From positions 1 through 61,278 of IMG/VR virus record IMGVR_UViG_3300036393_000024: 61,278 nt of DNA. One strand, given 5' to 3'. Of the stretch, positions 17,182 to 45,276 are shown in pieces. Positions within the stretch are counted from its first letter, which is position 1. Each line of letters opens with the position of its first letter. The translations under genes and the position numbers were made by a program. The DNA comes from a virus. The notes below the pieces were generated by a model, which was not told the origin of the DNA, did no database searches, and saw only the letters and a program-made list of their open reading frames with translations.

Positions 17182-18411
17182 GTGGCGAACTCGTACATCA
17201 AGGCCCCGAAGATCGCGGCCATGGCGCTGGGCGTGCTGGAGCGCGAGATCGTGCTCCCGGCGCTGGTCTGGCGTGACGCCGGCGGCTCGTTCAAGGGCGC
17301 CCAGGGTGACACGATCACCATCCGCGTCCCGGCCCGCTCCACCGCCCGGGTCCGGCAGCTGCGCGCCAACCGCACCGCGGACTTCAACGGTGCCGGCATC
17401 ATCACCCTCGACGACCTGGCCGAGACCAGCGTCGATGTGACCCTGGACCAGGAGATCTACCACGGCACCCGGATCACCGACGAGGAGCTGACCCTCGACA
17501 TCACCGACTTCGGGACCCAGGTGCTGCTGCCGCAGGTCCGCGCGGTCGCCGAGGGCCTGGAGAACAAGCTGGCCGAGCTGATGGTCGGCGCGACCTACGC
17601 GACCACCGTCTCGATCCCCTCCAGCGGTGACGACGTGGTGTACGACGCGATGATCGACGCCCGGAAGGCGCTGAACATCGCCAACGTGCCGACCAACGAG
17701 CGGGTCGTGGTCATGGGGCCGTCGATGGAGGCCCGGTTCCTCAAGGACAACCACCTCAACCACGCCGACACCGCCGGGGACGCCAGCGCACTGCGTGACG
17801 CCACGATCGGCCGGATCGCCGGGTTCGGGCAGGTGGTGGTGTCCAACGCGCTGCCCGAGGACGTCGGGTTCGCGTTCCACCGCACCGCCTACGTGCTGTC
17901 CACCCAGGCGCCGGCGGTGCCCGACGGGGCGCCCTACGGCGCCTCCCAGTCCTACCAGGGGCTGGCCATGCGGTGGCTGCGCGACTACGACCCGGGCAAC
18001 CTGCAGGACCGCTCCATCCTGGGCACCTACGCCGGCGCGAACATCATCGCCGACGGCCCGAAGGGCGCGGAGGTCCAGACGGCCACCATCACCGGCTCGC
18101 CGACCGGCGGCAGCTTCACCCTCACCTACGCCGGCCAGACCACCGCGGCGATCGCCTACAACGCCTCCGCGGCGACCGTGCGCGACCGGCTGCGGGCGCT
18201 GAACAACCTGGACAACGACGACGTCACCGTCACCGGCAGCGCCGGCGGGCCCTACACCATCACCATCGCCGGGAAGGGCAACGTCGGGCAGATCACCGCG
18301 ACCGCGTCGCTGACCGGCGGCAGCTCGCCGGGGGTCACGATGGCCACCTCCACCGAGGGCGGGCTGGGCGACCCCAGCTTCGTCCGGGCCGTGAAGCTCG
18401 TCCTGAGCTGA
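17182..18411 (+). CDS. Major capsid protein with C-terminal Ig-like domain
   Basis: 409 residues; GTG/ATG region with AGGAGG upstream. Residues 1-295 match a P22-coat-like HK97 fold (SYIKAPKIAAMALGVLERE, ITIRVPARSTARVRQL, VDVTLDQEIYHGTRI, NERVVVMGPSMEARFL, YGASQSYQGLAMRW). Residues about 298-390 form a separate beta-rich domain with TITGSPTGGSFTLTYAGQTT and LTGGSSPGV, followed by the last capsid strand. The same domain ends the major tail protein, with a 42-bp identical DNA stretch. It probably decorates the capsid surface. Confidence 0.93.
   Translation: MANSYIKAPKIAAMALGVLEREIVLPALVWRDAGGSFKGAQGDTITIRVPARSTARVRQLRANRTADFNGAGIITLDDLAETSVDVTLDQEIYHGTRITDEELTLDITDFGTQVLLPQVRAVAEGLENKLAELMVGATYATTVSIPSSGDDVVYDAMIDARKALNIANVPTNERVVVMGPSMEARFLKDNHLNHADTAGDASALRDATIGRIAGFGQVVVSNALPEDVGFAFHRTAYVLSTQAPAVPDGAPYGASQSYQGLAMRWLRDYDPGNLQDRSILGTYAGANIIADGPKGAEVQTATITGSPTGGSFTLTYAGQTTAAIAYNASAATVRDRLRALNNLDNDDVTVTGSAGGPYTITIAGKGNVGQITATASLTGGSSPGVTMATSTEGGLGDPSFVRAVKLVLS
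18124..18165 (+). repeat. 42-bp exact repeat, copy 1 (in the capsid gene)
   Basis: The 42 bases that encode TYAGQTTAAIAYNA are identical to 20640-20681 in the major tail protein gene. Confidence 0.9.
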
Positions 18412-20036: not shown

Positions 20037-20903
20037 ATGGCACTGAACGACGATCAGCTGTTCCTGCCGGGAACGGGCTTCGTGTACGTCGCCGCGGCCG
20101 GCACTGCCGCCCCGGCGGACATGGCCGACCCGGAGGCCTCCGGCTACGTGAACATCGGCCACACGGACATCGACGACAACATCTCGATCACCCGGGACGG
20201 CGGGGACTCGGAGACGTTGGGGACCTGGCAGAACCCCGTCGCCCGCGAGCGCCGCGACCCGGTGACGTTCGCGGTCAAGATGAAGCTGCTGCAGTTCTCC
20301 AACGAAACGCTGGAGCTGTACTTCGGCGGCGGCGACAAGTCGGTGGCCGGCAAGTTCGGCGTGCCGATCACCGCGGTCCCGCAGGAGCGGGCGCTGTTCA
20401 TCAGGATCGTGGACGGCGACCGCGAGGCTCCGCTGTGGATCGAGAAGACCTCGATCGGGTCCGATGACGACGTCGAGGCCGACACCGAGAAGTTCATGGG
20501 CTTCCCGGTGCGGGCCACCGTGCTGGGCGTGACCGGGCACAACCTGATGGAGTTCTTCGGCGATCACCTGGGCGTCCAGGGCAACGAGGTCCAGACCGTC
20601 ACCATCACCGGCACCCCCACCGGCGGCACCTTCACGTTGACCTACGCCGGCCAGACCACCGCGGCGATCGCCTACAACGCCGCCGCGGCGGCGGTCAAGG
20701 CAGCGCTGGTGGCCCTGTCGAACATCGGCTCGGCCGACGTCGCCGTGACCGGTGGCCCCGGGCCCGGCACGCCGTGGGTGGTCACTTTCCAGGGCAACCT
20801 CGCCGACACCGACGTGGCGCAGATGACCGCCAACTCGGCGGGCCTCACCGGCGGCACTTCGCCGGCGGTGGCGGTCACCACCACGACCCCCGGCGGCAAC
20901 TAG
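20037..20903 (+). CDS. Major tail protein with C-terminal Ig-like domain
   Basis: 288 residues; ATG after AAGGAGA. Residues 1-180 are the tube protein (FLPGTGFVYVAAAGTAAP, GHTDIDDNISITRDGG, ARERRDPVTFAVKMKLLQF, FGVPITAVPQERALF). Residues about 185-288 form the same beta domain as in the capsid protein (TITGTPTGGTFTLTYAGQTT..., LTGGTSPAV). Such add-on domains project from the tail surface and are not needed for tube assembly. Confidence 0.9.
   Translation: MALNDDQLFLPGTGFVYVAAAGTAAPADMADPEASGYVNIGHTDIDDNISITRDGGDSETLGTWQNPVARERRDPVTFAVKMKLLQFSNETLELYFGGGDKSVAGKFGVPITAVPQERALFIRIVDGDREAPLWIEKTSIGSDDDVEADTEKFMGFPVRATVLGVTGHNLMEFFGDHLGVQGNEVQTVTITGTPTGGTFTLTYAGQTTAAIAYNAAAAAVKAALVALSNIGSADVAVTGGPGPGTPWVVTFQGNLADTDVAQMTANSAGLTGGTSPAVAVTTTTPGGN
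20640..20681 (+). repeat. 42-bp exact repeat, copy 2 (in the major tail gene)
   Basis: Identical to 18124-18165 in the capsid gene. The flanking sequence diverges at synonymous positions. Confidence 0.9.
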
Positions 20904-28632: not shown

Positions 28633-31600
28633 GTGGCCGTCAAGCTCTACCTCACCTCGGCCGCCGCTGGGTTCACCCCGGCGACGATCCGGGGTGCCTG
28701 GTCGGATGCCGCGCTGACCGGCGCGTCGGCGCTGTCGCGGACGAAGGCGGGCGCGGCCGCGACAGCGAACCGATCGGAGACCTCCACCATCTCGACGTAC
28801 TCGGTGCTGCTGCGCCGGTTCGTCTCTACGCCGATCAACAACCCGGCCACGCTGGACGGCATCGCCTCGATGGTGCTCGGCGTCGCCGAGTCCGACCCGC
28901 AGGCGAACATGGTCACCCGCCTGCACCTGTACGTGACCGTCGGCTCGACCGACGTGGTGCGGGGCTCCTTGACCCCGTCGCAGCTGGTCGGTTCGGCCGA
29001 GTGGCCGTTCCCGGTCTTCGGCTCGTCGGTGTCGGTCGGCCAGGGGCTCACCATTCCGTCGCTCAACCCGGTGGACGCCCAGGTCGGCGACCGGGTAGTG
29101 CTCGAGGTCGGGTTCCGGGCGGTCAACACCGCCGTCAACCCGTACCTCGGTCAGATCAACTACGGGGCCACCGGGGCGGACCTGTCCGACGGCTCGACGG
29201 CGGTGGACAAGCAGCCAGGCTGGATCGAGTTCGCCGGCGCCGGGTTCACCTCGGCGTTCGGACCCACGACGCGCTCAGCCGGTGTCGTCACCCAGAACGG
29301 CTCACCGACCCAGAGCGCGACCGGGATGAAGGTCCGGGGCGCGACGGTCACCCAGAACGGCTCACCGACCCAAGGCGTGGCACTGGCGGGCAAGGGCGCG
29401 GAGGTCACCCAGGAGGGCTCACCCGAGGCCTCCGCGACCGTGTCGCGGACCAGTGACGCCGGGGTGGTGACCGCTGAGGCGTACCCGACTATGGAGGTGG
29501 AGGTCTCCCGGACCTCGGACGCCGGCGTGGTCACCCAGAACGGCTCGCCGACGATGACCGCGTACGCCCACGTCGAGGGCGACATCGACGCGCCCGCCAG
29601 TGGGCCGGACCTGATCCCGATCAACTCTCGGCCGCGCCAGTCCCACGCCCTGCGATTCATCGCCCAGGACATCCGCCCCGGTCGCTGGCTGGACTGGGAC
29701 CTGCCGCTGGTCGACCCCGAGATCACCTGGACCCTGTCCGGGCCCACCGTGATCCGGGCGAGGCTGAAGCCGGAGTACCGCCCGCTGGCCGAGCTGGGCA
29801 TCGACGGGTGGGCGACCTGGATCCACGTCGAGGACGACGGCGAGATCATCGCCTCCGGCATCCTGCAACCGAACGGTCCGGACGACGACAGCTACATCGT
29901 CGAAGCGATCGGCGTCTCGGGCTACGCACAGAAGATGCCCTACCTCGGTGAGGACTCGTTCATCGAGGTCGACACCTGCGTGGTGCTGCGCAAGATCTGG
30001 GACCACCTGCAGTCCTACCCGGACGCCAAGCTGGGTGTGCAGATCACCGGCTCGACCTCCTGCGGCACTCTGCTGGGCTCCCCGGCCCAGGCGGCGGTCG
30101 ACCCGGCCACTGGTGAGGTTCAGACCAGCACGAGCTCGACCGGCGGGACCGACACCGGCGGCGGCTCGGGCGTGCGGCCGGCGTGGGGTGTCCCTGCCGG
30201 GATGAAGGGTCTGATCGACCAGGACCCGTCCGACCACCAGGTCCCCTGGAAGATCCCGAGCGGCGCCGACCACGTCGACATCTACTTCTACGCGCCCGCT
30301 TCCAACGGGGTGACCTCCGAGTGGCTGGGCTACATCAAGAAGGGCGCGGCGCTGTGGAACCAGTCGCCGCCGCTGAACTGCATCGTGACCCAGTCGGCCG
30401 TGCCGGCCGGCAAGAACAAGGTCACCATGAAGATCAACGATGGTGGCGGGGACGACGGCAACTTCGACGCCGTCGAGAAGGGCGGCTACACCACCGGCGG
30501 CGAGATCCAGATCCTCAAGACGCTCAAGGGCGGCTCCGGCGGCGGCGAGCGGCAGAACGTCACCACGCACGAGATGGGCCACGCGGTCGGGCTGGCCCAC
30601 CGCAAGCAGTCGCGCGTGCTGATGAACGGCGACACCTACTCCGACGTGTTCATCCCGGACGCCACCGACCGCAAGAACCTGCTCTACATGTACGGCAAGC
30701 AGCTGCCCGGCGGCCACACCAACGGCGGTAGCCCGACCTCCTCGAGCAGCACGACGAGCACCTCGGCCACGGTGACCTCGACGACCACCGACCCCACGAC
30801 CGGCGTGCAGACCGTCACCTACTCCGACGGCTCGACGAAGACCCTGACCCCGAAGGTCGACGAGGCCAAGCCCTACGTGCTGGCCTGGTACGACGACCGG
30901 GACTGCGGGCAGGAGTTCGACAACCTGGCCAAGGCCGCCGGCGTCGACTACGTCGAGCGGGTCGGCTGGGACCCGACCAGGACGTTCGTCAACCACGCCA
31001 TCGAGCTGAACTACCCCCGGGCCGGCCGCAAGCGCCTGGACCTGCGCTGCGCGCTGGACGAGAACCTGCTCGACACCTTCCCACTCCCGGAGACCACCGC
31101 CCAGTTCGCCTCGCAGATCCTCGTGCGCGGCGCGGGCAAGGGCCGGGCGGCCATCCGCGGCTACGCCGGCTCCCCGGACCCGAAGCGCGTGCGCCGGGTG
31201 GCCACCGTGTCCGACCAGACCATCTCCGACACCGCCACCGCGAACTCCACCGCCGAAGAGGAGCGACTGCGGCGCCTCGCCGCGGTCAGCATCGGCGAGA
31301 TCACCCTGGACGCCGACCACCCGGACATGCCGCTGGGCTCCTACTCCGCCGGCGACGACGTCCTGATCACCGCGACCCTGGACTACGTCGGCCGGGTCGA
31401 GCTGTGGCACCGGATCATCGAGTACACCTGGCACCCGGACGCCGGCCAGGTCGTCGCCCAGGTGCGCCGCTCCGAGCAGTTCGCCTACGGCCGCCGACCC
31501 ACCGCGCGCGCCTCGGGCTACGCCGGCGCGGTCGCCCCGGACAAGTTCGTCATGGCGTTCGGCTCCAGCCTCGACGGCGGCGACTCGGCCGTCTTCAAGA

Positions 31601-33213
31601 CGATCGCCGAACAGACCCCCGACTACCTGGCCCTGCTCGGAGACCTCTGGCACGACGACGGCGGCTCCGGCCACCTGGAGCACTGGCAGAAGGCTCTGAA
31701 CGCCCCCAACCTCGGCGCGCTCGTCCAGAAGCTCCCGAACCCAGTCCTGCTCGGCCTGTCCGCGCACGAGGGCTTCGCCCCGAACGCCACCGCCGGGCCG
31801 GCGTTCGACCGCGCCAACATCGACTACCGCCGGCTGTACCCGGGCCTGAAGCTGCTGGCCGAGAAGGGCATCTACCGGCGCATCGACCGGGGCCGGGTGC
31901 GGATCATCCAGCTGGACTGCCGGACGTTCAAGTCCCCGAACGACGCCCCGGACGACCCGCTCAAGACGATGCTCGGGCTGCAGCAGAAGGCGTGGTTCAA
32001 GGCCATGCTCGGGAGTCCCTGCTACCCGGTCATCATCGTCATCGGCGACATGCCGTGGAACTCCCCGAAGGTCGATCGCGCGGACTCCTGGGCCGGCTAC
32101 ACCACCGAGCGCACCGAGCTGGCCGCCGCCTACCAGGCCTCACCCGCCAAGATCATCGTTCAGCTCGAGGGCGGCGCCCACTCGCTGGCGAAGGCGACGA
32201 ACGCCGGCGGCATCGACCGGGTCTGGCGCGCCGCCCCGTTCCGGGGCAACACCGACGTCCCGGGCAAGGGCGACGGGTACGCCGAGAACTTCCCGTCGAT
32301 CGCGGCCGCCGGCCCGGTCGCCGAGCAGTTCGGGCTGGTCACCGTCACCGACACCAGCCAGAAGATCACCGTCGAGTTCAAGGGCTACTCCGGCGGCCAG
32401 GTCAAGATGACCGACAGCATCGCCATCGACGCCCCCTCCGGCACGCCGATCGCCACCGCGCCCGCCACCGGCGGAACCGGCTCGACCGGTGGCACCGCGG
32501 CCACGGCGGGCAACCCGTCCCAGCTGCTCAAGATCGGCAAGCAGACCGGCTGGAGCAAGTTCAACCTCGGTGTCGGCTACTCGGGCAGCTCGCACAAGGA
32601 CTCGGACCTGACTGCGATCCAGAACGGCCTGGTCATCCCCGGCTACTTCGAGATGACCGCCGACAAGCAGCGGGTCAAGATGTCCAGCCACCTCGACGGC
32701 GGCCGCACCAGCTCCAACACGAAGTACCCGCGTACCGAGTTCCGCGAGCTCGGCCTCGACGGCAGCTCGAAGGCCTCGTGGAACGCGGGCTCCGGCACGC
32801 ACCGGCTGTTCTGCCGGGGCCGGGTCACCCGGATGCCCCCGAACAAGCCGCAGCTGTGCCTGGCCCAGACCCACGACGCCGACGACGACACCGGGATGAT
32901 CTACGTCAACTCGAAGACGCAGGTCATCGTCAAGCACCGGGGCGAGAACATCGGCACGCTGACCAACGACTTCAAGTTCGGGGTCGACTACGACTACGGC
33001 TTCGAGCTGGTCAACGGCCAGATGAAGTACTTCTGGGGCAACTTCACCACCCCCCGGTTCACCCGCTCAGTCTCCGGGTCGGGCTGGTACTTCAAGGCCG
33101 GCGCCTACGGCCAGTCGAACAGCTCGACCGACAAGACCAGCGACGGACCCTTCATCGTCGAGATGAGCCGGTGCATGGCCTGGCACTCCGGCTACCCGAA
33201 CCCGGTGGGCTAG
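28633..33213 (+). CDS. Giant minor tail protein with metzincin, PhoD-like and PL7 lyase domains
   Basis: 1526 residues; GTG 28633. Order: beta-rich N terminus (1-215); VTQNGSPT repeats (217-307); a Gp37-like (ReqiPepy6 type) tail domain starting at about 325 (PRQSHALRFIAQDIRPGRW). A metzincin domain (about 505-700, HEMGHAVGLAH at 646-656) interrupts that tail domain, which resumes near 750 (VLAWYDDRDCGQEFDNLAKA) and runs to about 955. Then a PhoD-like phosphoesterase (about 970-1270: ALLGDLWHDDG, GLSAHEGFAPN, QLEGGAHSLA) with several usual metal ligands changed; last, a PL7 alginate-lyase-like domain (about 1295-1526: RTEFREL, AQTHD, YFKAGAYGQ). The whole should digest surface proteins and uronate polysaccharide during adsorption. 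Confidence 0.9.
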   Translation: MAVKLYLTSAAAGFTPATIRGAWSDAALTGASALSRTKAGAAATANRSETSTISTYSVLLRRFVSTPINNPATLDGIASMVLGVAESDPQANMVTRLHLYVTVGSTDVVRGSLTPSQLVGSAEWPFPVFGSSVSVGQGLTIPSLNPVDAQVGDRVVLEVGFRAVNTAVNPYLGQINYGATGADLSDGSTAVDKQPGWIEFAGAGFTSAFGPTTRSAGVVTQNGSPTQSATGMKVRGATVTQNGSPTQGVALAGKGAEVTQEGSPEASATVSRTSDAGVVTAEAYPTMEVEVSRTSDAGVVTQNGSPTMTAYAHVEGDIDAPASGPDLIPINSRPRQSHALRFIAQDIRPGRWLDWDLPLVDPEITWTLSGPTVIRARLKPEYRPLAELGIDGWATWIHVEDDGEIIASGILQPNGPDDDSYIVEAIGVSGYAQKMPYLGEDSFIEVDTCVVLRKIWDHLQSYPDAKLGVQITGSTSCGTLLGSPAQAAVDPATGEVQTSTSSTGGTDTGGGSGVRPAWGVPAGMKGLIDQDPSDHQVPWKIPSGADHVDIYFYAPASNGVTSEWLGYIKKGAALWNQSPPLNCIVTQSAVPAGKNKVTMKINDGGGDDGNFDAVEKGGYTTGGEIQILKTLKGGSGGGERQNVTTHEMGHAVGLAHRKQSRVLMNGDTYSDVFIPDATDRKNLLYMYGKQLPGGHTNGGSPTSSSSTTSTSATVTSTTTDPTTGVQTVTYSDGSTKTLTPKVDEAKPYVLAWYDDRDCGQEFDNLAKAAGVDYVERVGWDPTRTFVNHAIELNYPRAGRKRLDLRCALDENLLDTFPLPETTAQFASQILVRGAGKGRAAIRGYAGSPDPKRVRRVATVSDQTISDTATANSTAEEERLRRLAAVSIGEITLDADHPDMPLGSYSAGDDVLITATLDYVGRVELWHRIIEYTWHPDAGQVVAQVRRSEQFAYGRRPTARASGYAGAVAPDKFVMAFGSSLDGGDSAVFKTIAEQTPDYLALLGDLWHDDGGSGHLEHWQKALNAPNLGALVQKLPNPVLLGLSAHEGFAPNATAGPAFDRANIDYRRLYPGLKLLAEKGIYRRIDRGRVRIIQLDCRTFKSPNDAPDDPLKTMLGLQQKAWFKAMLGSPCYPVIIVIGDMPWNSPKVDRADSWAGYTTERTELAAAYQASPAKIIVQLEGGAHSLAKATNAGGIDRVWRAAPFRGNTDVPGKGDGYAENFPSIAAAGPVAEQFGLVTVTDTSQKITVEFKGYSGGQVKMTDSIAIDAPSGTPIATAPATGGTGSTGGTAATAGNPSQLLKIGKQTGWSKFNLGVGYSGSSHKDSDLTAIQNGLVIPGYFEMTADKQRVKMSSHLDGGRTSSNTKYPRTEFRELGLDGSSKASWNAGSGTHRLFCRGRVTRMPPNKPQLCLAQTHDADDDTGMIYVNSKTQVIVKHRGENIGTLTNDFKFGVDYDYGFELVNGQMKYFWGNFTTPRFTRSVSGSGWYFKAGAYGQSNSSTDKTSDGPFIVEMSRCMAWHSGYPNPVG
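29287..29555 (+). repeat. VTQNGSPT-type repeats in the giant tail gene
   Basis: Four units with GTCACCCAG(A/G)A(C/G)GGCTC at about 29287, 29347, 29402 and 29528, separated by spacers of which two share RTSDAGVV. Likely a flexible or beta-solenoid stalk between the tail hub and enzyme domains. Confidence 0.8.
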
Positions 33214-39160: not shown

Positions 39161-39464
39161 ACTCATCGCGTCGATCTTCACCGGGCTCACCGGTCTGGTC
39201 GTCGGGTTGGGCGCCTACACCGCCAACCGCTCCCGCTCGATCGCGGCCGACCACCGAGAGCTCCGCCGCCAGGTCCGGAAGCTGCAGAAACAGCTCGTCG
39301 CGACCCTGGGCCACGTATTCGAGCTGGAGATACGGATGGCCTCGTCTGGGCTGCCAGTTCCGGAACGGCCGAAGATCCTGGAGGACCTCGACGATGACGA
39401 CGCCACAGCAGCCGCGACGGCCAAGCGATCGATTGCTGGCGATGGCGGCGGACGCGACGGATGA
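39150..39464 (+). CDS. Small membrane/coiled-coil protein of the lysis region
   Basis: 104 residues; ATG 39150. One N-terminal membrane segment (IASIFTGLTGLVVGLGAYTA), then a basic coiled coil (DHRELRRQVRKLQKQL) and an acidic tail. The layout resembles accessory lysis proteins such as Rz-like or holin-associated membrane proteins. Its end overlaps the next gene. Confidence 0.65.
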   Translation: MSPELIASIFTGLTGLVVGLGAYTANRSRSIAADHRELRRQVRKLQKQLVATLGHVFELEIRMASSGLPVPERPKILEDLDDDDATAAATAKRSIAGDGGGRDG

Positions 39465-40233
39465 GCCCGCGTCGCAGCGTCCGCCGCCGCGGTTCCTGCC
39501 GGCCGTGCTCGTCGCACTCGGACTGCTCACGGCGGCCGCCGCGATGCTGCTGAGCAACGAGGCCGGGAAGAGCGACGAACGCGCCACCGCCGCCCGCGCC
39601 GAGTCGGTGTCGCTGGCCGAGCAGGTCGCCGGCGAGTGCGGGCAGGGTCGGCTGACGGGTCCGGTATGTGAGCGGGCCACGCGGGTCATCACGACCCCGG
39701 TCCCGGGACCGCCAGGCTCCCCCGGCGAACCGGGCATGCCCGGTGGTCGAGGCCCGGCCGGACCGGCGGGCCCCGCCGGTGTCGCCGGCGCGCCGGGTGC
39801 TGCGGGCGCGGCGGGTCAGGTCGGCGCGGCCGGTGTCGCGGGACCGACCGGGGTCGCCGGTCCGGCGGGCGCGCCCGGGCCGGTCGGTGAGGCTGGGCAG
39901 CCCGGCCAGGACGGGCAGCCTCCATCCGGCTGGACGGTCACCCGCGCCGACGGCACCACCGAGCGGTGCACTCGGGACACCGACGCCAACACCTACTCCT
40001 GCGGATCCGACGGGCCTCCGCCGCCGGTGCCGGCGTTGCCCAGCCCGGCCCCGGTGTTGGCGCTCACCTCGCAGCAGGCGGCGACGCCCGCGCGGCAGTC
40101 CACGGCCCAGCCCAAGCAAGCGAAGAACGGGAACACGAAGCAGCGGCGGAAGGCGGCTCCGAAGGCTGACAAGCCGCAGCTGCCCAAGCCGCCGAACCTC
40201 AAGCTACCCAAGCTGGCTCTGCCGAAGCTGTGA
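39394..40233 (+). CDS. Membrane-anchored collagen-like protein
   Basis: 279 residues; ATG 39394 with GGAGG nine bases upstream, in another frame within the preceding gene. One membrane segment (about 34-54), a short helical part, then about 20 G-x-y triplets (about 107-172) rich in Pro and Ala, a Cys pair (TTERCTRD, YSCGSD), a Pro/Ala linker and a very basic, KLPK-repeat tail. The collagen stalk would trimerise outside the membrane. Possible role in lysis or surface change. Confidence 0.7.
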   Translation: MTTPQQPRRPSDRLLAMAADATDEPASQRPPPRFLPAVLVALGLLTAAAAMLLSNEAGKSDERATAARAESVSLAEQVAGECGQGRLTGPVCERATRVITTPVPGPPGSPGEPGMPGGRGPAGPAGPAGVAGAPGAAGAAGQVGAAGVAGPTGVAGPAGAPGPVGEAGQPGQDGQPPSGWTVTRADGTTERCTRDTDANTYSCGSDGPPPPVPALPSPAPVLALTSQQAATPARQSTAQPKQAKNGNTKQRRKAAPKADKPQLPKPPNLKLPKLALPKL

Positions 40234-40537: not shown

Positions 40538-41338
40538 ATGGCCACGTCCCAGAACGGCTTCCTCGCCAACAACCGGGCCCTGGTGGCCTCCCAGCGCATC
40601 CCGGGTACGCAGGTGAACATCAGCGTGCGGACCGACGCTCCGGGCCTGCTGCTGCTCGAGGTGGCCGCCGCGTTCGACCGGCTGGTCGAGGACGTGGACA
40701 ACGCCCGGGGCGCCCTGGACGACTGGGGTTACGCCGAACGCCCGATCCGTGGCGGCGGCCAGCTGTCCAACCACGCCAGCGGCACCGCCATCGACCTCAA
40801 CGCCACCCGGCACCCGCTGGGCACCTCGCCCTCGGCCAATTTCAGCGCCGCCCAGGTCGTCCAGATCCGCAGGATCGTCGCGGTCACCGGTGGCGTCGTG
40901 CGGTGGGGCGGGGACTACACGGGCCGCAAGGACCCGATGCACTTCGAGATCAACGACGGCCGGACGGTCGCCCAGTGCCGCGTCGCCCTGGACGCCATGC
41001 GCCGCTTCAACGGTTCCCCCAGCCCCCAGGAGGTCGACGTGCCGTTTCCCACCCTCAAGCTCGGCGACGGCGTGCCGGACAGGCTCGACACCGGCCCTGC
41101 CGACCCCGGCCGCCAGCACTGGTTCGTCGACAGCGTGCAGACCCTGCTCAACAGGCGGGGGCTGAAGGACGACACCGGCAAGCCCCTGCCCCCGCTGCTG
41201 GTCGACGGCCAGTTCGGCACCGCCACCGAGGCCCGGGTGAAGGTGCTGCAGAGGCGATCCGGCGTCCCGCAGACCGGTCGCGTCGATGCCGTGACCTGGT
41301 ACTGGCTGGCCGGCAACGACGCACCCGACTTCGCGTGA
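40538..41338 (+). CDS. lysA: Endolysin: M15 (VanY-like) peptidase with peptidoglycan-binding domain
   Basis: 266 residues; ATG with GGAGG upstream. The zinc peptidase part has SNHASGTAIDLN (about 78-89, His and Asp ligands) and DPMHFEI (about 132, His ligand) with RWGGDY before it, as in D-Ala-D-Ala carboxypeptidase/L-Ala-D-Glu endopeptidases. A C-terminal PG_binding_1 domain (about 195-255) contains VQTLLNRRGL, VDGQFGTATEARVKVLQRR and GRVDAVTW. No signal peptide, so release needs the holin. Confidence 0.92.
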   Translation: MATSQNGFLANNRALVASQRIPGTQVNISVRTDAPGLLLLEVAAAFDRLVEDVDNARGALDDWGYAERPIRGGGQLSNHASGTAIDLNATRHPLGTSPSANFSAAQVVQIRRIVAVTGGVVRWGGDYTGRKDPMHFEINDGRTVAQCRVALDAMRRFNGSPSPQEVDVPFPTLKLGDGVPDRLDTGPADPGRQHWFVDSVQTLLNRRGLKDDTGKPLPPLLVDGQFGTATEARVKVLQRRSGVPQTGRVDAVTWYWLAGNDAPDFA

Positions 41339-41479: not shown

Positions 41480-42196
41480 ATGACCCTGACCCCTGCCCAG
41501 AAGGCAGCCATCGTGGCCGCCCTGACCCTCGTTCTGGGAATCTTCGGCCTGACGGTCGTGCCGTCGAATCCGCCGAGCTCCACGCCGGCGCCGGGCAGCA
41601 GTAAGTACGCCGCCTGCGTCGCGCCGTCCGGCATGACCGCGCTGATCGACCAGGACAAGAGCGACAGCCAGAAGCCGTGGCGGATCCCGCCCGGCTCCGA
41701 CCACGCCGAGGTGTGGTTCAACGCCGCCCCGCTGGACGCGAAGGCGGTCCAGGCCGGCTGGACCCAGAGCGTCTACCTCGACTACCTGCGCAACGGCCGA
41801 GACGTGTGGAACCAGAGCCCGTGCCTGGACGTGCACGTGGTGCAGCTGGAGGGCAACTACCGGGGCCTCGACCAGTGCCCGGCCGGGAAGAACTGCGTGC
41901 CGATCGTCATCGGTGACGGAGGCGGCGACGACGGCAACTTCAACGCCCGAGAGTCGGACGGGTTCACCATCGGCGGCGACATCCAGGTGCTCCGCAAGCT
42001 GTCGGCGAACACCGACTCGAAGGGCTGCAACGAGCGCAAGAACGTCGTGGCGCACGAGATGGGGCACGCCGTCGGCCTGGTCCACCGCCGCGGCCGGGTG
42101 CTGATGAACGGCGACACCTACGGCGACATCTGCACCGCCGACCCGGACGAGTACCGCAACCTGCTCTTCGACTACGGCCGCCAGATCCGGCGCTGA
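41480..42196 (+). CDS. Membrane-anchored metzincin-type metalloprotease
   Basis: 238 residues; ATG with GAAGGAG. An N-terminal hydrophobic segment (about 8-27) looks like an anchor or signal. The catalytic domain (about 45-238) has HEMGHAVGLVH (192-202), the full zinc-binding HExxHxxGxxH, and a following VLMNGDTYGD that provides the metzincin Met-turn-like Met. It is a paralogue of the domain inserted in the giant tail protein (shared GLIDQD/ALIDQD, GGGDDGNF, HEMGHAVGL, VLMNGDTY). In the lysis block it may digest cell-wall proteins at release. Confidence 0.87.
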   Translation: MTLTPAQKAAIVAALTLVLGIFGLTVVPSNPPSSTPAPGSSKYAACVAPSGMTALIDQDKSDSQKPWRIPPGSDHAEVWFNAAPLDAKAVQAGWTQSVYLDYLRNGRDVWNQSPCLDVHVVQLEGNYRGLDQCPAGKNCVPIVIGDGGGDDGNFNARESDGFTIGGDIQVLRKLSANTDSKGCNERKNVVAHEMGHAVGLVHRRGRVLMNGDTYGDICTADPDEYRNLLFDYGRQIRR

Positions 42197-42210: not shown

Positions 42211-42582
42211 ATGATCTTCGGACGTGAGCCGGCGCTGTTCTACACGCTGGTCGCCAACATCATCACCCTGGCCTCCGGCCTGGGCCTGAACCTGTCGGTC
42301 GAGCAGCAGGGCGTGCTGAACGCCATGGTCGTGCTCCTGAGCGGCTGCGTGCTGGCGTGGAAGGTCGCGACCGAGCAGGGCATCGCGCTGCTCGGCGGGG
42401 TCGCCAAGGGTCTGATCGCGCTGGCCCTGGCCTTCGGCGCGCACCTGTCCCCCGAGCTGCAGAGCTCGGCCCTTCTCGTGGTCAACCTGGCCATCGCGTT
42501 CATCGTGCGCAGCCAGGTCACCGCCCCGACCCCGCCGCGGCTCCCGGCGGGCCGTGACGAGGCCGCGGAAGTCACGCCGTGA
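42211..42582 (+). CDS. Holin
   Basis: 123 residues; ATG with AGGAGG. Three to four hydrophobic segments (about 8-30, 35-53, 62-80, 86-103) with a short charged C-terminal tail. The size, topology and place beside the endolysin are those of an actinophage holin, which opens the membrane and triggers lysis. Confidence 0.85.
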   Translation: MIFGREPALFYTLVANIITLASGLGLNLSVEQQGVLNAMVVLLSGCVLAWKVATEQGIALLGGVAKGLIALALAFGAHLSPELQSSALLVVNLAIAFIVRSQVTAPTPPRLPAGRDEAAEVTP

Positions 42583-42607
42583 TCCTGCTCGAGCAGGAGA
42601 GCCCGCG

Positions 42608-43525
42608 ATGCCCGTGACCCAGCCGGGCGCTGTGCTCGACCTGCGGGCGTGGAAGCTCACCCTGCCGATCGAGGGCCGCAAGAACGGGAAGGGCACCGGG
42701 AAGCCCCGGGAGATCCTGCCCTCCGAGCTGGTCGCACTCAGCGCCGACGATCTCACCGGCCTCGCCCCGTACATCCGGGCGGTCACCGTCCCGGCGGCCG
42801 GTGTGGAGTTCCGGGCACCGGTGGTCGGGTTCACCACGCCCGGATCGGAGAACAAGCGCTCCGAGCTGCGCGAGATGAACGCGAAGGACCCCACCAAGCT
42901 GGCCAGCTGGTCATCGACCGACGGTGTCGGGCATACCTGCTGGCTGGACGTCACCCCGACCCGGCTCCCGACCGGCAACGCCGGCGTCGGGCTGGTCCCG
43001 CAGCAGATCCACGACGTCGACGACGACGTCGCGGTCTGGCGGATCGAGGCGTCCGGGCTGTGGCTGGCCATCGGCGACCACCGCGAGAACTGGAGGCTCA
43101 TCGACCCCGGCTACAGGGTCGGGACCCGGCTGCGGCTCGCGCTGGTCGCGGTCGCCGGCGAGATCCGCGCCTACCGCGACGGGCAGCTGGCCCACCGGTT
43201 CCCGGCGAAGGTGTCCGGCTGCTACTTCAAGGCCGGCGCCTACACCCAGGCCAACGCTGGCGCCTACCCGATGTCGGCGGCCAACTACGGGGCCGCGGTC
43301 ATCCACGACCTGCGCGTCGTCCACGGCCCTGTGCAGGCCGTCCCGGGCCCACCCGCGCCGGCCCCGGCCCCGGGCGGCGCCGCACCGGTCACCACTCCCG
43401 CGGCGCCGAGCTCCCCGGTCGTCGGCAAGCCGGTCGTGTTCGTCGCCACGCCGACCGCCGACGGCGGATGGACGCTACGCCCGGTCCCGCCCGAGCTGCT
43501 GAAGGTCGACCCGGCCACCATCTAG
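42608..43525 (+). CDS. Polysaccharide lyase family 7 (alginate lyase-like), stand-alone
   Basis: 305 residues; ATG 42608 with AGGAG. A jelly-roll lyase with the three PL7 signatures: KRSELRE (about 83-89), QIH (about 133) and YFKAGAYTQ (about 205). It begins DLRAWKLTLPIEGR. After residue 240 a Pro/Ala linker leads to a short C-terminal segment (VVFVATPTADGGWTL). It cleaves uronate-containing polysaccharides by beta-elimination. No signal peptide, so it is probably released at lysis. Related to the C-terminal domain of the giant tail protein. Confidence 0.87.
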   Translation: MPVTQPGAVLDLRAWKLTLPIEGRKNGKGTGKPREILPSELVALSADDLTGLAPYIRAVTVPAAGVEFRAPVVGFTTPGSENKRSELREMNAKDPTKLASWSSTDGVGHTCWLDVTPTRLPTGNAGVGLVPQQIHDVDDDVAVWRIEASGLWLAIGDHRENWRLIDPGYRVGTRLRLALVAVAGEIRAYRDGQLAHRFPAKVSGCYFKAGAYTQANAGAYPMSAANYGAAVIHDLRVVHGPVQAVPGPPAPAPAPGGAAPVTTPAAPSSPVVGKPVVFVATPTADGGWTLRPVPPELLKVDPATI

Positions 43526-43846
43526 ACCAGCCGCTCCCCTGCTCGATCCTGGTGCCCACTCCGCCCACTTCCCCGGGGCGGCGCGGGCACCACTTCATCG
43601 TGAGCCTTGCCCGGCCGGCGGGGCGTCCCCGAAGCGCCCAGTCGCCGCCGAGCACGCCAGGCCCCCACCCGAACCCTCTTCCTGGGTCGGGCGGGGGCTC
43701 CTTCGTGCGTTCTAGTGGCATCGCCCGGGGACATCGACGCCAGCGCCGGCCAGCCACCAGGAGCGGAGACTACGACTGGCTCCATCCGGGTGACGTTGAC
43801 CGAAAACACCCCACCCCGGTGCGGTGGCCCGGAAAGCTGTGGAGCC
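43526..43846. other. 321-bp gap holding a terminator and probably the promoter of the peptide/methyltransferase pair
   Basis: No gene is supported. The terminator is at 43661-43698. A TTGACC box at 43796-43801 is a possible -35, without a clear -10. Confidence 0.45.
43661..43698 (+). terminator. Late-operon terminator
   Basis: An imperfect 15-bp stem: GCCCCCACCCGAACC (43661-43675) with GGGTCGGGCGGGGGC (43684-43698), two mismatches, followed by TCCTTCGTGCGTTCT. It ends the lysis operon and isolates the next two genes. Confidence 0.72.
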
Positions 43847-43963
43847 ATGGGTAACCACGACAAGCCCGACACTGACCCCAGCCAGGACGGCCAGGCGCCC
43901 GGGATCCCGCCGGAGGCCGACCCGGGCAAGCACGCCAAGGACGACGACGACGAGAAGAAGTGA
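43847..43963 (+). CDS. 38-residue Asp-rich peptide, candidate substrate of the methyltransferase
   Basis: ATG 43847, with GGAAAG about ten bases upstream. The peptide has nine Asp in 38 residues, a DG pair at 14-15, several Pro-Asp/Asp-Pro contacts, and ends DDDDEKK. It lacks Cys. Its stop overlaps the methyltransferase start (GTGA), so both are made together. The frame is open upstream to 43607, but that part reads like non-coding sequence. A precursor of an aspartimide-type RiPP is inferred from context, not proven. It could instead be a small regulatory or accessory protein. Confidence 0.5.
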   Translation: MGNHDKPDTDPSQDGQAPGIPPEADPGKHAKDDDDEKK

Positions 43964-45006
43964 TCGACTGGGCCGAGGTGATGGACCGGGTCCCTCGGGA
44001 GCGGTTCATCCCCCAGGTGATCTGGCGTCATGAGCGCGGTCGCGGCGGCAACGACCACCTTCCGGTCGACCGGGCCACCGACCCTGATGCCTGGGCCGCC
44101 ATGGTCGCTGCCGACGAGCCGGTGGTGACCCAGGTCGACAACGGCCGTCCGGCGCCCGATGGGACCGGCCGCGAGGTCACCTCCTCCAGTTCCGACCGCC
44201 GGGTCGTGCTGAACATGCTCCAGCTTCTCGACGCGCAGCCAGGCGAGCGGGTGTTGGAGATCGGCGCCGGCACTGGATGGAACGCCGCCCTGCTGGCCGG
44301 GGGCGGGGCCCAGGTGGTCAGCCTCGAGGTCGACGAGCAGTTGGCCGAGACGGCGCTCGACAACCTGGTGCTGGCCGGCTACACCGAGGTGACGGTCGTC
44401 GGTGGAGACGGCCTACTGGGCTGGTCGGTCGCGGCACCCTACGACCGGCTGATCGCCACCGTCGGGGTGGAGACCGTGCCGGCCGCCTGGGTGGAGCAGA
44501 CCCGCCTCGGCGGCCGGCTGGTGGTGCCGCTGACCAACCAGTGGCAGCCGCCCGGCACCGTGGTGCTGGAACGGACCCCGAGCGGCGCGATCGGCCGGAT
44601 CGCCGCCCGATCGGCGTTCATGTCCGTGCGCTCCCAGCACCGCAACCGGCTCGCCGGGAGCAGTTACACGGCGCCGGCGGAGGTGCGGGGACGCTGCGAT
44701 GTGCACCCGCACGCCCTGGCCGGCGACCCGGACGCAGCGACGGCGATCGGCCAGCGGGTCATGGAGATCAGTTGGTCGTGGGCCAAGTCGAACGGCTGCG
44801 GGGTGCTGCACCTGTTCGGCGGCGACGGCATCTCCTGGGCGTGGTTGGACGACGAGGGCGACACCGAACAGGCGGGCCCCCGACGGCTGCTGGACGAGGT
44901 CCTGGCCGCGTACGGCTGGTGGGTGGAGCAGAGCAAGCCCGCCCGGGAGGACTGGGTCGTGACCGTGGACCTGGACGGCCGGCAGCGGATCGAGCTACGC
45001 AGCTGA
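43960..45006 (+). CDS. PIMT-like (protein L-isoaspartate) methyltransferase, ERFIP type
   Basis: 348 residues; GTG in a GTGA overlap with the peptide gene. N terminus RVPRERFIPQVIW, then VTSSSSDRRVVLNMLQLL and SAM motif I VLEIGAGTGWNAALL (about 97-111), followed by a PIMT core with GGDGLLGW and YDRLIATVGVETVP. About 120 extra C-terminal residues follow, as in actinobacterial methyltransferases associated with RiPP clusters. PIMT homologues methylate Asp side chains, and in lanthipeptide, lasso, graspetide and imiditide pathways this gives aspartimide. The coupled Asp-rich peptide suggests such a role. It is bounded by a terminator and by convergent genes. Confidence 0.85.
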   Translation: MIDWAEVMDRVPRERFIPQVIWRHERGRGGNDHLPVDRATDPDAWAAMVAADEPVVTQVDNGRPAPDGTGREVTSSSSDRRVVLNMLQLLDAQPGERVLEIGAGTGWNAALLAGGGAQVVSLEVDEQLAETALDNLVLAGYTEVTVVGGDGLLGWSVAAPYDRLIATVGVETVPAAWVEQTRLGGRLVVPLTNQWQPPGTVVLERTPSGAIGRIAARSAFMSVRSQHRNRLAGSSYTAPAEVRGRCDVHPHALAGDPDAATAIGQRVMEISWSWAKSNGCGVLHLFGGDGISWAWLDDEGDTEQAGPRRLLDEVLAAYGWWVEQSKPAREDWVVTVDLDGRQRIELRS

Positions 45007-45024: not shown

Positions 45025-45276
45025 CTACGGCCACTCCCGGTGGCCGTAGGCGGCGCAGCGGCCATCGGCGTCGAGCCTTGCCCGGCACTCCCGCCAGCCG
45101 CCGCTCATCCACATCCGGGCCCGACAGCGGCGCTGTGGCTCCGGCGGCAGCCCGGTCAGGACGCGCCGCAGCACCAGCTCGGACAAGCTGAGCCCGGCCT
45201 CGGCCGCTTCGCCGACGAGGCGCTGGTAGACCTCCGGCGGGACGCGGGCGGCCACGACCCGCTGGTGCTGGCTCAT
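45025..45276 (-). CDS. Small RHH-like protein with Cys tail
   Basis: 83 residues; ATG 45276 overlaps the previous stop (ATGA). Residues about 5-42 (RVVAARVPPEVYQRLVGEAAEAGLSLSELVLR) fit an Arc/MetJ ribbon-helix-helix. A basic C-terminal part has three Cys. It is the last gene of the leftward operon and converges with the methyltransferase gene 18 bases away. Confidence 0.7.
   Translation of the reverse strand: MSQHQRVVAARVPPEVYQRLVGEAAEAGLSLSELVLRRVLTGLPPEPQRRCRARMWMSGGWRECRARLDADGRCAAYGHREWP

What the first reader, a model, noticed from the sequence alone, without database searches (positions are those of the whole stretch)
43847..45006. Phage-borne peptide/PIMT pair resembling a minimal aspartimide RiPP (imiditide-like) locus
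Seen: a 38-codon Asp-rich gene (nine Asp, one DG pair, DDDDEKK end) overlaps by four bases the start of a PIMT-like methyltransferase with an ERFIP motif and SAM motif I. The pair is cut off from the lysis operon by a terminator and ends at convergent genes. Known: PIMT homologues convert Asp to aspartimide in several RiPP classes, and imiditides need only a short precursor and the methyltransferase. Inference: the prophage could make a modified peptide, perhaps for competition, signalling or host physiology. I know of no described phage example.
Basis: partly seen in the sequence, partly recalled or inferred. Interest (0 to 1): 0.85.

Follow-up and report, generated by a model that had tools for sequence, protein, structure and literature searches.

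The report
Phage-borne imiditide-type peptide and methyltransferase
A temperate virus of an actinomycete bacterium carries a two-gene set, a 38-residue aspartate-rich peptide and the enzyme predicted to modify one of its aspartates, that belongs by sequence to a known bacterial class (imiditides, or type I pamtides); what such peptides do is unknown, and their presence in laboratory-cultured phages gives a simple way to find out.

Summary
The 38-codon gene (43847-43963) and the GTG-started methyltransferase (43960-45006) overlap by four bases and lie inside a temperate siphovirus, after endolysin, holin and an alginate-lyase-like gene. The peptide is a real gene: its closest relatives in Pseudonocardia acaciae encode clearly homologous peptides (Smith-Waterman 121 against a shuffled mean of 34) directly upstream of 49-54% identical methyltransferases. 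Across 67 non-redundant loci the methyltransferase is normally preceded by a short hydrophilic Gly/Pro/Asp/Lys-rich peptide. [quoted passage not shown] Every sequence feature of imiditides/type I pamtides that I could test is met, except a Gly-to-Ser change in the WXXXGXP motif. Predicted chemistry: methylation of Asp14 (Asp14-Gly15), then aspartimide, then isoAsp/Asp; not shown. The class was described in 2023, so this is a new member of a known kind. The main texts of the papers I read do not mention phages, yet cultured Streptomyces Austintatiousvirus phages (for example Alderaan) carry the same arrangement, annotated only as methyltransferase plus hypothetical protein. The biological role is open.

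The parts
43847..43963 (+). precursor peptide gene, 38 aa (imiditide / type I pamtide precursor)
43886..43891 (+). codons of Asp14-Gly15, the predicted modification site
   Evidence: aligned with the DG of P. acaciae homologues L011 and L012; location confirmed by pattern search; inferred, not shown
43960..45006 (+). PIMT-family peptide L-aspartyl O-methyltransferase (PAMT), 348 aa
44257..44277 (+). SAM-binding motif I (EIGAGTG, residues 100-106)
44920..44940 (+). WVEQSKP (residues 321-327), counterpart of the WXXXGXP motif of RiPP-associated PIMTs, Ser for Gly
   Evidence: motif from PMC13001092
43660..43699 (+). GC-rich hairpin between the lysis region and the pair, possible terminator
   Evidence: z -4.05; not called by the T-run scan
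42211..42582 (+). holin (phrog_9752), context
40538..41338 (+). endolysin (Peptidase_M15_4 + PG_binding_1), context
42554..43525 (+). alginate-lyase-2-like protein, last gene before the pair, context

Best explanation
The pair is an imiditide (type I pamtide) locus carried as an accessory module by a temperate actinophage. The 38-aa peptide is the substrate. The translationally coupled PIMT-family enzyme uses SAM to methylate one Asp side chain, most likely Asp14 of Asp14-Gly15; the neighbouring backbone nitrogen then attacks the ester to give an aspartimide, which hydrolyses to isoAsp and Asp. Shown here: gene reality, homology of both genes to co-occurring chromosomal pairs, absence of repair-type features, intact SAM motif and C-terminal domain, phage context. 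Inferred: the chemistry, the site, and that the phage gains from it. My best guess for the role is lysogenic conversion, a peptide acting for or on the lysogen's host or its competitors, with low confidence (about 0.35).
For: Peptide homology to P. acaciae precursors, 0 of 2000 shuffles. Peptide upstream of the methyltransferase in nearly all relatives; DG in 53 of 67 non-redundant loci against 38.1 +/- 3.4 in shuffles. Enzyme tree: 100* clade with stand-alone peptide-linked enzymes of Pseudonocardia, repair PCMTs separated at 99*, TgmC-type graspetide enzymes separate. Best curated models are RiPP methyltransferases (TIGR04188, 231 bits, residues 4-342), repair PIMT 107 bits against a cut-off of 188. 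AlphaFold model (pLDDT 94.8) has the C-terminal domain; best PDB match over the full length is T. maritima PIMT 1DL5, as described for this enzyme clade (PMC10787088). No graspetide ATP-grasp enzyme in the record. Class definition: two genes, ~45-aa Gly/Pro/Asp-rich precursor, conserved Asp near Gly/Pro (PMC10787088; PMC13001092). Peptide and enzyme net charge anti-correlate over 59 loci (rho -0.46, p 3e-4, no correction for kinship), in line with the reported electrostatic recognition.
Against: No chemistry is shown. Ser replaces Gly in WXXXGXP. The peptide is unusually acidic (net -6), while imiditides are described as strongly positively charged (PMC13001092). Ribosome-binding site and promoter are weak. 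DG enrichment beyond composition is moderate because the peptides are rich in D and G. Thirteen records with related portal proteins, many of them partial, gave no match to the enzyme, so it is not needed for the phage life cycle.
Confidence: 0.82

Rival explanations
1. A phage-borne repair PIMT that restores isoAsp-damaged proteins, with an unrelated short ORF in front.
For: The catalytic domain is PIMT/PCMT, and other viral contigs do carry short PCMT-like genes (L217-L246).
Against: Scores far below the repair equivalog cut-offs, C-terminal domain present, outside the repair PCMTs at 99*, peptide conserved with it.
Confidence: 0.04
2. The methyltransferase is a secondary enzyme of a graspetide, lanthipeptide or lasso pathway whose other genes lie elsewhere in the host.
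For: Best named model is the ATP-grasp-system methyltransferase TIGR04188, though below its cut-off; many other viral contigs have an ATP-grasp-like end upstream of the enzyme.
Against: No graspetide ATP-grasp in the record; TgmC-type enzymes form a separate clade; the peptide lacks Cys and has little Ser/Thr; its homologues sit alone with the enzyme.
Confidence: 0.06
3. The pair is a real imiditide locus but a conflict module: the modified peptide acts against other phages (superinfection) or against rival bacteria on behalf of the prophage.
For: Phage lineages carry such pairs at several places of the tree; host genomes hold many copies (15 and 18 matches); several Streptomyces copies travel with an XRE regulator. 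Precedents: up to 3% of prophages carry gene clusters, mostly for bacteriocins (PMC7616364); anti-phage lanthipeptides of Streptomyces (PMC12360287).
Against: No immunity gene, transporter or protease recognised beside the pair; no defence-model match apart from a domain-level hit to mad2; purely circumstantial.
Confidence: 0.25
4. The pair is neutral cargo picked up from a host chromosome by imprecise excision and now drifting.
For: Accessory: not found in records with related portal proteins; some chromosomal copies have decayed or frameshifted precursors.
Against: Both genes intact with full coding signal, motif and overlapping start; window enzyme about 50% diverged from its nearest relatives yet intact; the four Austintatiousvirus members read all keep the pair.
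Confidence: 0.15

Closest known systems
Imiditides / type I pamtides (NmaA-NmaM of Nonomuraea maritima; SpaA-SpaM of Streptomyces sparsogenes)
   Same: Two adjacent genes; short Asp/Gly/Pro-rich linear precursor; PIMT homologue with extra C-terminal domain; one conserved Asp near Gly/Pro; no other RiPP enzyme
   Different: Phage-borne; acidic DDDDEKK tail; WXXXSXP instead of WXXXGXP; chemistry not shown. NmaM and SpaM sequences were not at hand, so no direct alignment to them
Peptide-PAMT pairs of Pseudonocardia acaciae (L011, L012, L112)
   Same: Homologous peptide (DGQAP in L011 and L012, DPGKH in all three) and 46-54% identical enzyme
   Different: On host genome contigs; L112 has Asn-Gly at the Asp-Gly site
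Methyltransferase and hypothetical protein of Streptomyces phages Austintatious, Alderaan, Bioscum, Ididsumtinwong, PapayaSalad
   Same: Short DG-containing peptide directly upstream of a 36-41% identical enzyme, next to the lysis genes of a temperate phage
   Different: Peptide of another subfamily (SGKHGGGSGSG..SDGSGP); separate place in the tree, so probably an independent acquisition
TgmC graspetide methyltransferases and FxLD lanthipeptide methyltransferases
   Same: PIMT-family enzymes with C-terminal extension, associated with Asp modification in a RiPP
   Different: Act beside a cyclising enzyme, which is missing here

Membership tests
[quoted passage not shown]
   348 aa; AlphaFold2 model shows E242 H257 E270 E280 E293 E301 H310; best PDB match 1DL5 over the full length; definition from PMC10787088
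Imiditide / type I pamtide | Enzyme groups with RiPP PAMTs, apart from repair PCMT | tested here: met
   Tree of 78 proteins; only three repair references were used
Imiditide / type I pamtide | WXXXGXP motif near the C-terminus | tested here: inconclusive
   W321 and P327 present and invariant over 43 sequences, Gly replaced by Ser325
Imiditide / type I pamtide | Adjacent short precursor (~45 aa) rich in Gly, Pro and Asp, without zinc ribbon | tested here: met
   38 aa, 9 Asp, 6 Pro, 4 Gly, no Cys
Imiditide / type I pamtide | At least one conserved Asp next to conserved Gly/Pro | tested here: met
   Asp14-Gly15 conserved in the nearest homologues L011 and L012 (DGQAP); Asn-Gly in L112
Imiditide / type I pamtide | No primary RiPP enzyme (ATP-grasp, lanthionine synthesis, lasso) in the locus | tested here: met
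   No graspetide ATP-grasp match in the record; lanthipeptide dehydratase search empty but its control was also empty; neighbours are phage genes or unknown; lasso enzymes were not searched for
Imiditide / type I pamtide | Enzyme converts a single Asp of the linear peptide to methyl ester, aspartimide or isoAsp | not testable with these tools
   needs co-expression and mass spectrometry
Type II pamtide / cysimiditide | Two CXXCXGXG motifs in the precursor | tested here: not met
   no Cys in the peptide
Repair PIMT (PCMT) | Score above the curated repair models | tested here: not met
   106.8 bits against 188 (NF001453), 85.9 against 159 (TIGR00080)
Graspetide methyltransferase TgmC (TIGR04188) | Score above cut-off, with an ATP-grasp partner | tested here: not met
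   230.6 against 380 bits; no partner
FxLD lanthipeptide methyltransferase (TIGR04364) | Score above cut-off | tested here: not met
   119.8 against 320 bits

The most novel reading that the evidence does not exclude
Unrelated temperate phages of Actinomycetota have repeatedly taken up imiditide pairs (and zinc-ribbon type II pairs) from their hosts and use the aspartimide or isoAsp peptide in phage-host or phage-phage conflict or lysogenic conversion, which would give this RiPP class its first biological role.
Probability: 0.3. Interest if true: 0.8.

Novelty: new member of a known kind. Interest (0 to 1): 0.5.

Why it matters
A 2026 review names the missing biological function of aspartimide RiPPs as the bigger challenge ahead (PMC13001092). 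Phage-borne pairs turn that into a simple experiment, because similar pairs sit in cultured phages of S. venezuelae (Austintatiousvirus, including Alderaan), where one can remove two small genes and compare lysis, lysogeny, superinfection and competition. It also adds a RiPP class to those carried by phages: a survey of actinobacterial prophages with antiSMASH reported small putative clusters in 13 of 2,112, among them class I lanthipeptides and type III PKS (PMC10023795), so the two-gene imiditide layout is easily missed.

Tried and rejected
Single-protein search of viral contigs found only an unrelated methyltransferase (L006); the alignment search found the relatives. Direct search of phage records with the 38-aa peptide found nothing, as expected for a short biased peptide. 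A first automatic choice of upstream peptides was wrong because of a frame-filter error and was replaced; in the final set a few picks are still wrong (for example L019, L026, L115), and by eye the right frame of L019 and L026 also holds DG. Searching for NmaM by its DEDGD loop found no exact copy in the loci held; the window's own DDEGD falls in the C-terminal region, but equivalence is not established. Taking all IMG/VR hits as phage genes was rejected: L094/L179, L096/L186 and several ATP-grasp-linked ones lie near predicted provirus edges and may be host DNA; I rely on cultured Austintatiousvirus and on L095, L098, L099 and L100, where terminase, tail, endolysin or integrase genes lie in the same contig.

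Full report
What is there. The record is a 61,278-base virus contig. It carries terminase, portal, scaffold, major head, major tail and tape-measure genes, an endolysin, a holin and an integrase, and a ParB-like protein, so it is a temperate siphovirus. The pair follows endolysin (40538-41338), a metalloprotease-like gene, holin (42211-42582) and an alginate-lyase-like gene (42554-43525), behind a strong hairpin at 43660-43699, and meets convergent genes at 45025. It is inside the phage, not at its edge.

The peptide is a gene, not a chance ORF. Its codon-position GC is 0.74/0.39/0.95, like neighbouring phage genes. The closest chromosomal relatives of the enzyme, in Pseudonocardia acaciae, have directly upstream MGKHDPPKPPVDPSKDGQAPNIPKEPDPGKHGKK (L012) and MGEHDKPDPQPNPENDGQAPPGPIPADPDPGKHGKK (L011). 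Local alignment scores to the window peptide are 121 and 100 against shuffled means of 34 and 37, with 0 of 2000 shuffles as high. The conserved parts are the MG.HD start, the DGQAP core and the DPGKH.K end; the window peptide adds DDDDEKK.

The pairing is general. In 80 genome loci, viral contigs and the plasmids looked at the enzyme is normally preceded within about 100 bases by a short hydrophilic ORF, mostly with a ribosome-binding site. In 67 loci non-redundant at 70% enzyme identity, the automatically chosen peptides have a median length of 40 aa and are 18.7% Gly, 15.1% Pro and 11.9% Asp, close to the published 17.3, 16.8 and 10.2% for type I pamtides (PMC10787088). DG occurs in 53 of 67, against 38.1 +/- 3.4 in shuffles (maximum 50 of 2000). 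Where DG is absent the site often reads D followed by S, T or H, as in the Streptosporangium paralogues; His after the modified Asp is known from NmaA (PMC13001092). Two members have Asn-Gly at the site (L112, L082), which can itself form a succinimide (established peptide chemistry); I note this as suggestive only.

The enzyme is RiPP-type. NCBIfam gives TIGR04188 (231 bits, residues 4-342) first and repair PIMT well below its cut-off. In the tree the window lies in a 100* group with the P. acaciae enzymes and one from another genome of the same group; the three repair PCMT references are separated at 99* and the three TgmC-type graspetide enzymes form their own clade. The alignment of 43 members keeps EIGxGTGWNAALL, the SSxS segment and W321/P327. 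The structure model (pLDDT 94.8) has the C-terminal domain order reported for PAMTs, and its best solved match over the full length is T. maritima PIMT 1DL5, the one solved member of this clade named in the literature (PMC10787088). No graspetide ATP-grasp was found in the record.

How it most likely works. By analogy with NmaM and SpaM, which act on linear peptides (PMC13001092; PMC10787088), the enzyme methylates Asp14; the ester closes to an aspartimide and hydrolyses to isoAsp and Asp. The four-base overlap suggests translational coupling. Peptide and enzyme net charges anti-correlate over 59 loci (rho -0.46, no correction for kinship), which fits the reported electrostatic recognition; the window pair, both acidic, departs from that trend. 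Chemistry and site are inference.

Phage distribution. Five cultured Streptomyces phages (Austintatiousvirus) carry the enzyme, and the four whose loci I read carry the peptide-enzyme pair beside their lysis genes. Viral contigs L095, L098 and L099 carry type I pairs, and L100 and probably L097 type II precursors, among phage genes. These enzymes fall in different parts of the tree, next to chromosomal ones, which suggests several acquisitions; counts must be read with care because some IMG/VR proviruses may include host flanks. Thirteen records with related portal proteins gave no match to the enzyme, several of them too short to reach the region, so the pair looks accessory. Host genomes can hold many family members (15 matches in P. 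acaciae, 18 in a Streptosporangium), while relatives close to the window's are rare in Pseudonocardia (3 of 62 genomes at E <= 1e-45).

What is known. The class was described in 2023 as imiditides and as pamtides (1414 type I, 125 type II). The main texts of PMC10787088 and PMC13001092 contain no mention of phages; their supplements were not read, and the 2023 imiditide paper (J. Am. Chem. Soc.) was not in the library. Phage-borne bacteriocin clusters are known in general (PMC7616364). So this is a new member of a known kind in a setting I found no report of.

Verdict. Observation confirmed; interpretation supported as to class, open as to function. Interest 0.5: not a new kind, but it makes the unsolved function of the class testable in laboratory phages.

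Noticed in passing
window 28633-33213 and 42554-43525: A large tail-region protein has PhoD-like and alginate-lyase-2 domains, and a second stand-alone alginate-lyase-2 protein sits in the lysis region: two polysaccharide-lyase-like domains in one phage.
   Followed up: no
window 39394-40233: Collagen-like triple-helix protein (PF01391) just before the endolysin.
   Followed up: no
window 41480-42196: Metalloprotease-like protein with HEMGHAVGL motif and only weak family matches, between endolysin and holin.
   Followed up: no
window 17182-18411 and 20037-20903: Major head and major tail proteins share a C-terminal region matching the same PHROGs (10909, 2839), perhaps a common Ig-like decoration.
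   Followed up: no
L112 (P. acaciae) and L082 (Actinomadura rudentiformis): Precursors with Asn-Gly in place of Asp-Gly at the predicted modification site.
   Followed up: no
L094/L063, L095/L083, L096/L085: A regulator gene (XRE-type, phrog_5823 in L094 and L096), in two cases with a small gene, stays with the peptide-enzyme pair between Streptomyces viral contigs and chromosomal loci.
   Followed up: partly
L022, L029, L041, L074, L109: Methyltransferase kept while the precursor gene is truncated, decayed or frameshifted.
   Followed up: partly
L097, L100: Viral contigs with type II (zinc-ribbon) pamtide precursors or fragments beside tail or endolysin genes; L100 also has an XRE-like and a DUF397-like gene upstream.
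   Followed up: partly
L192-L194, L198, L203, L204, L206-L209, L211-L214, L216: Viral contigs where the ORF upstream of the PIMT-like enzyme looks like the end of an ATP-grasp protein, i.e. possible graspetide clusters in phages or provirus flanks.
   Followed up: no
L217-L246: Metagenomic viral contigs with short PCMT-like genes matching only the catalytic domain, the likely repair type.
   Followed up: no
window 43960-45006: The PADLOC model mad2 (MADS defence) matches the catalytic domain (68 bits), so that defence protein probably holds a PIMT-like domain.
   Followed up: no
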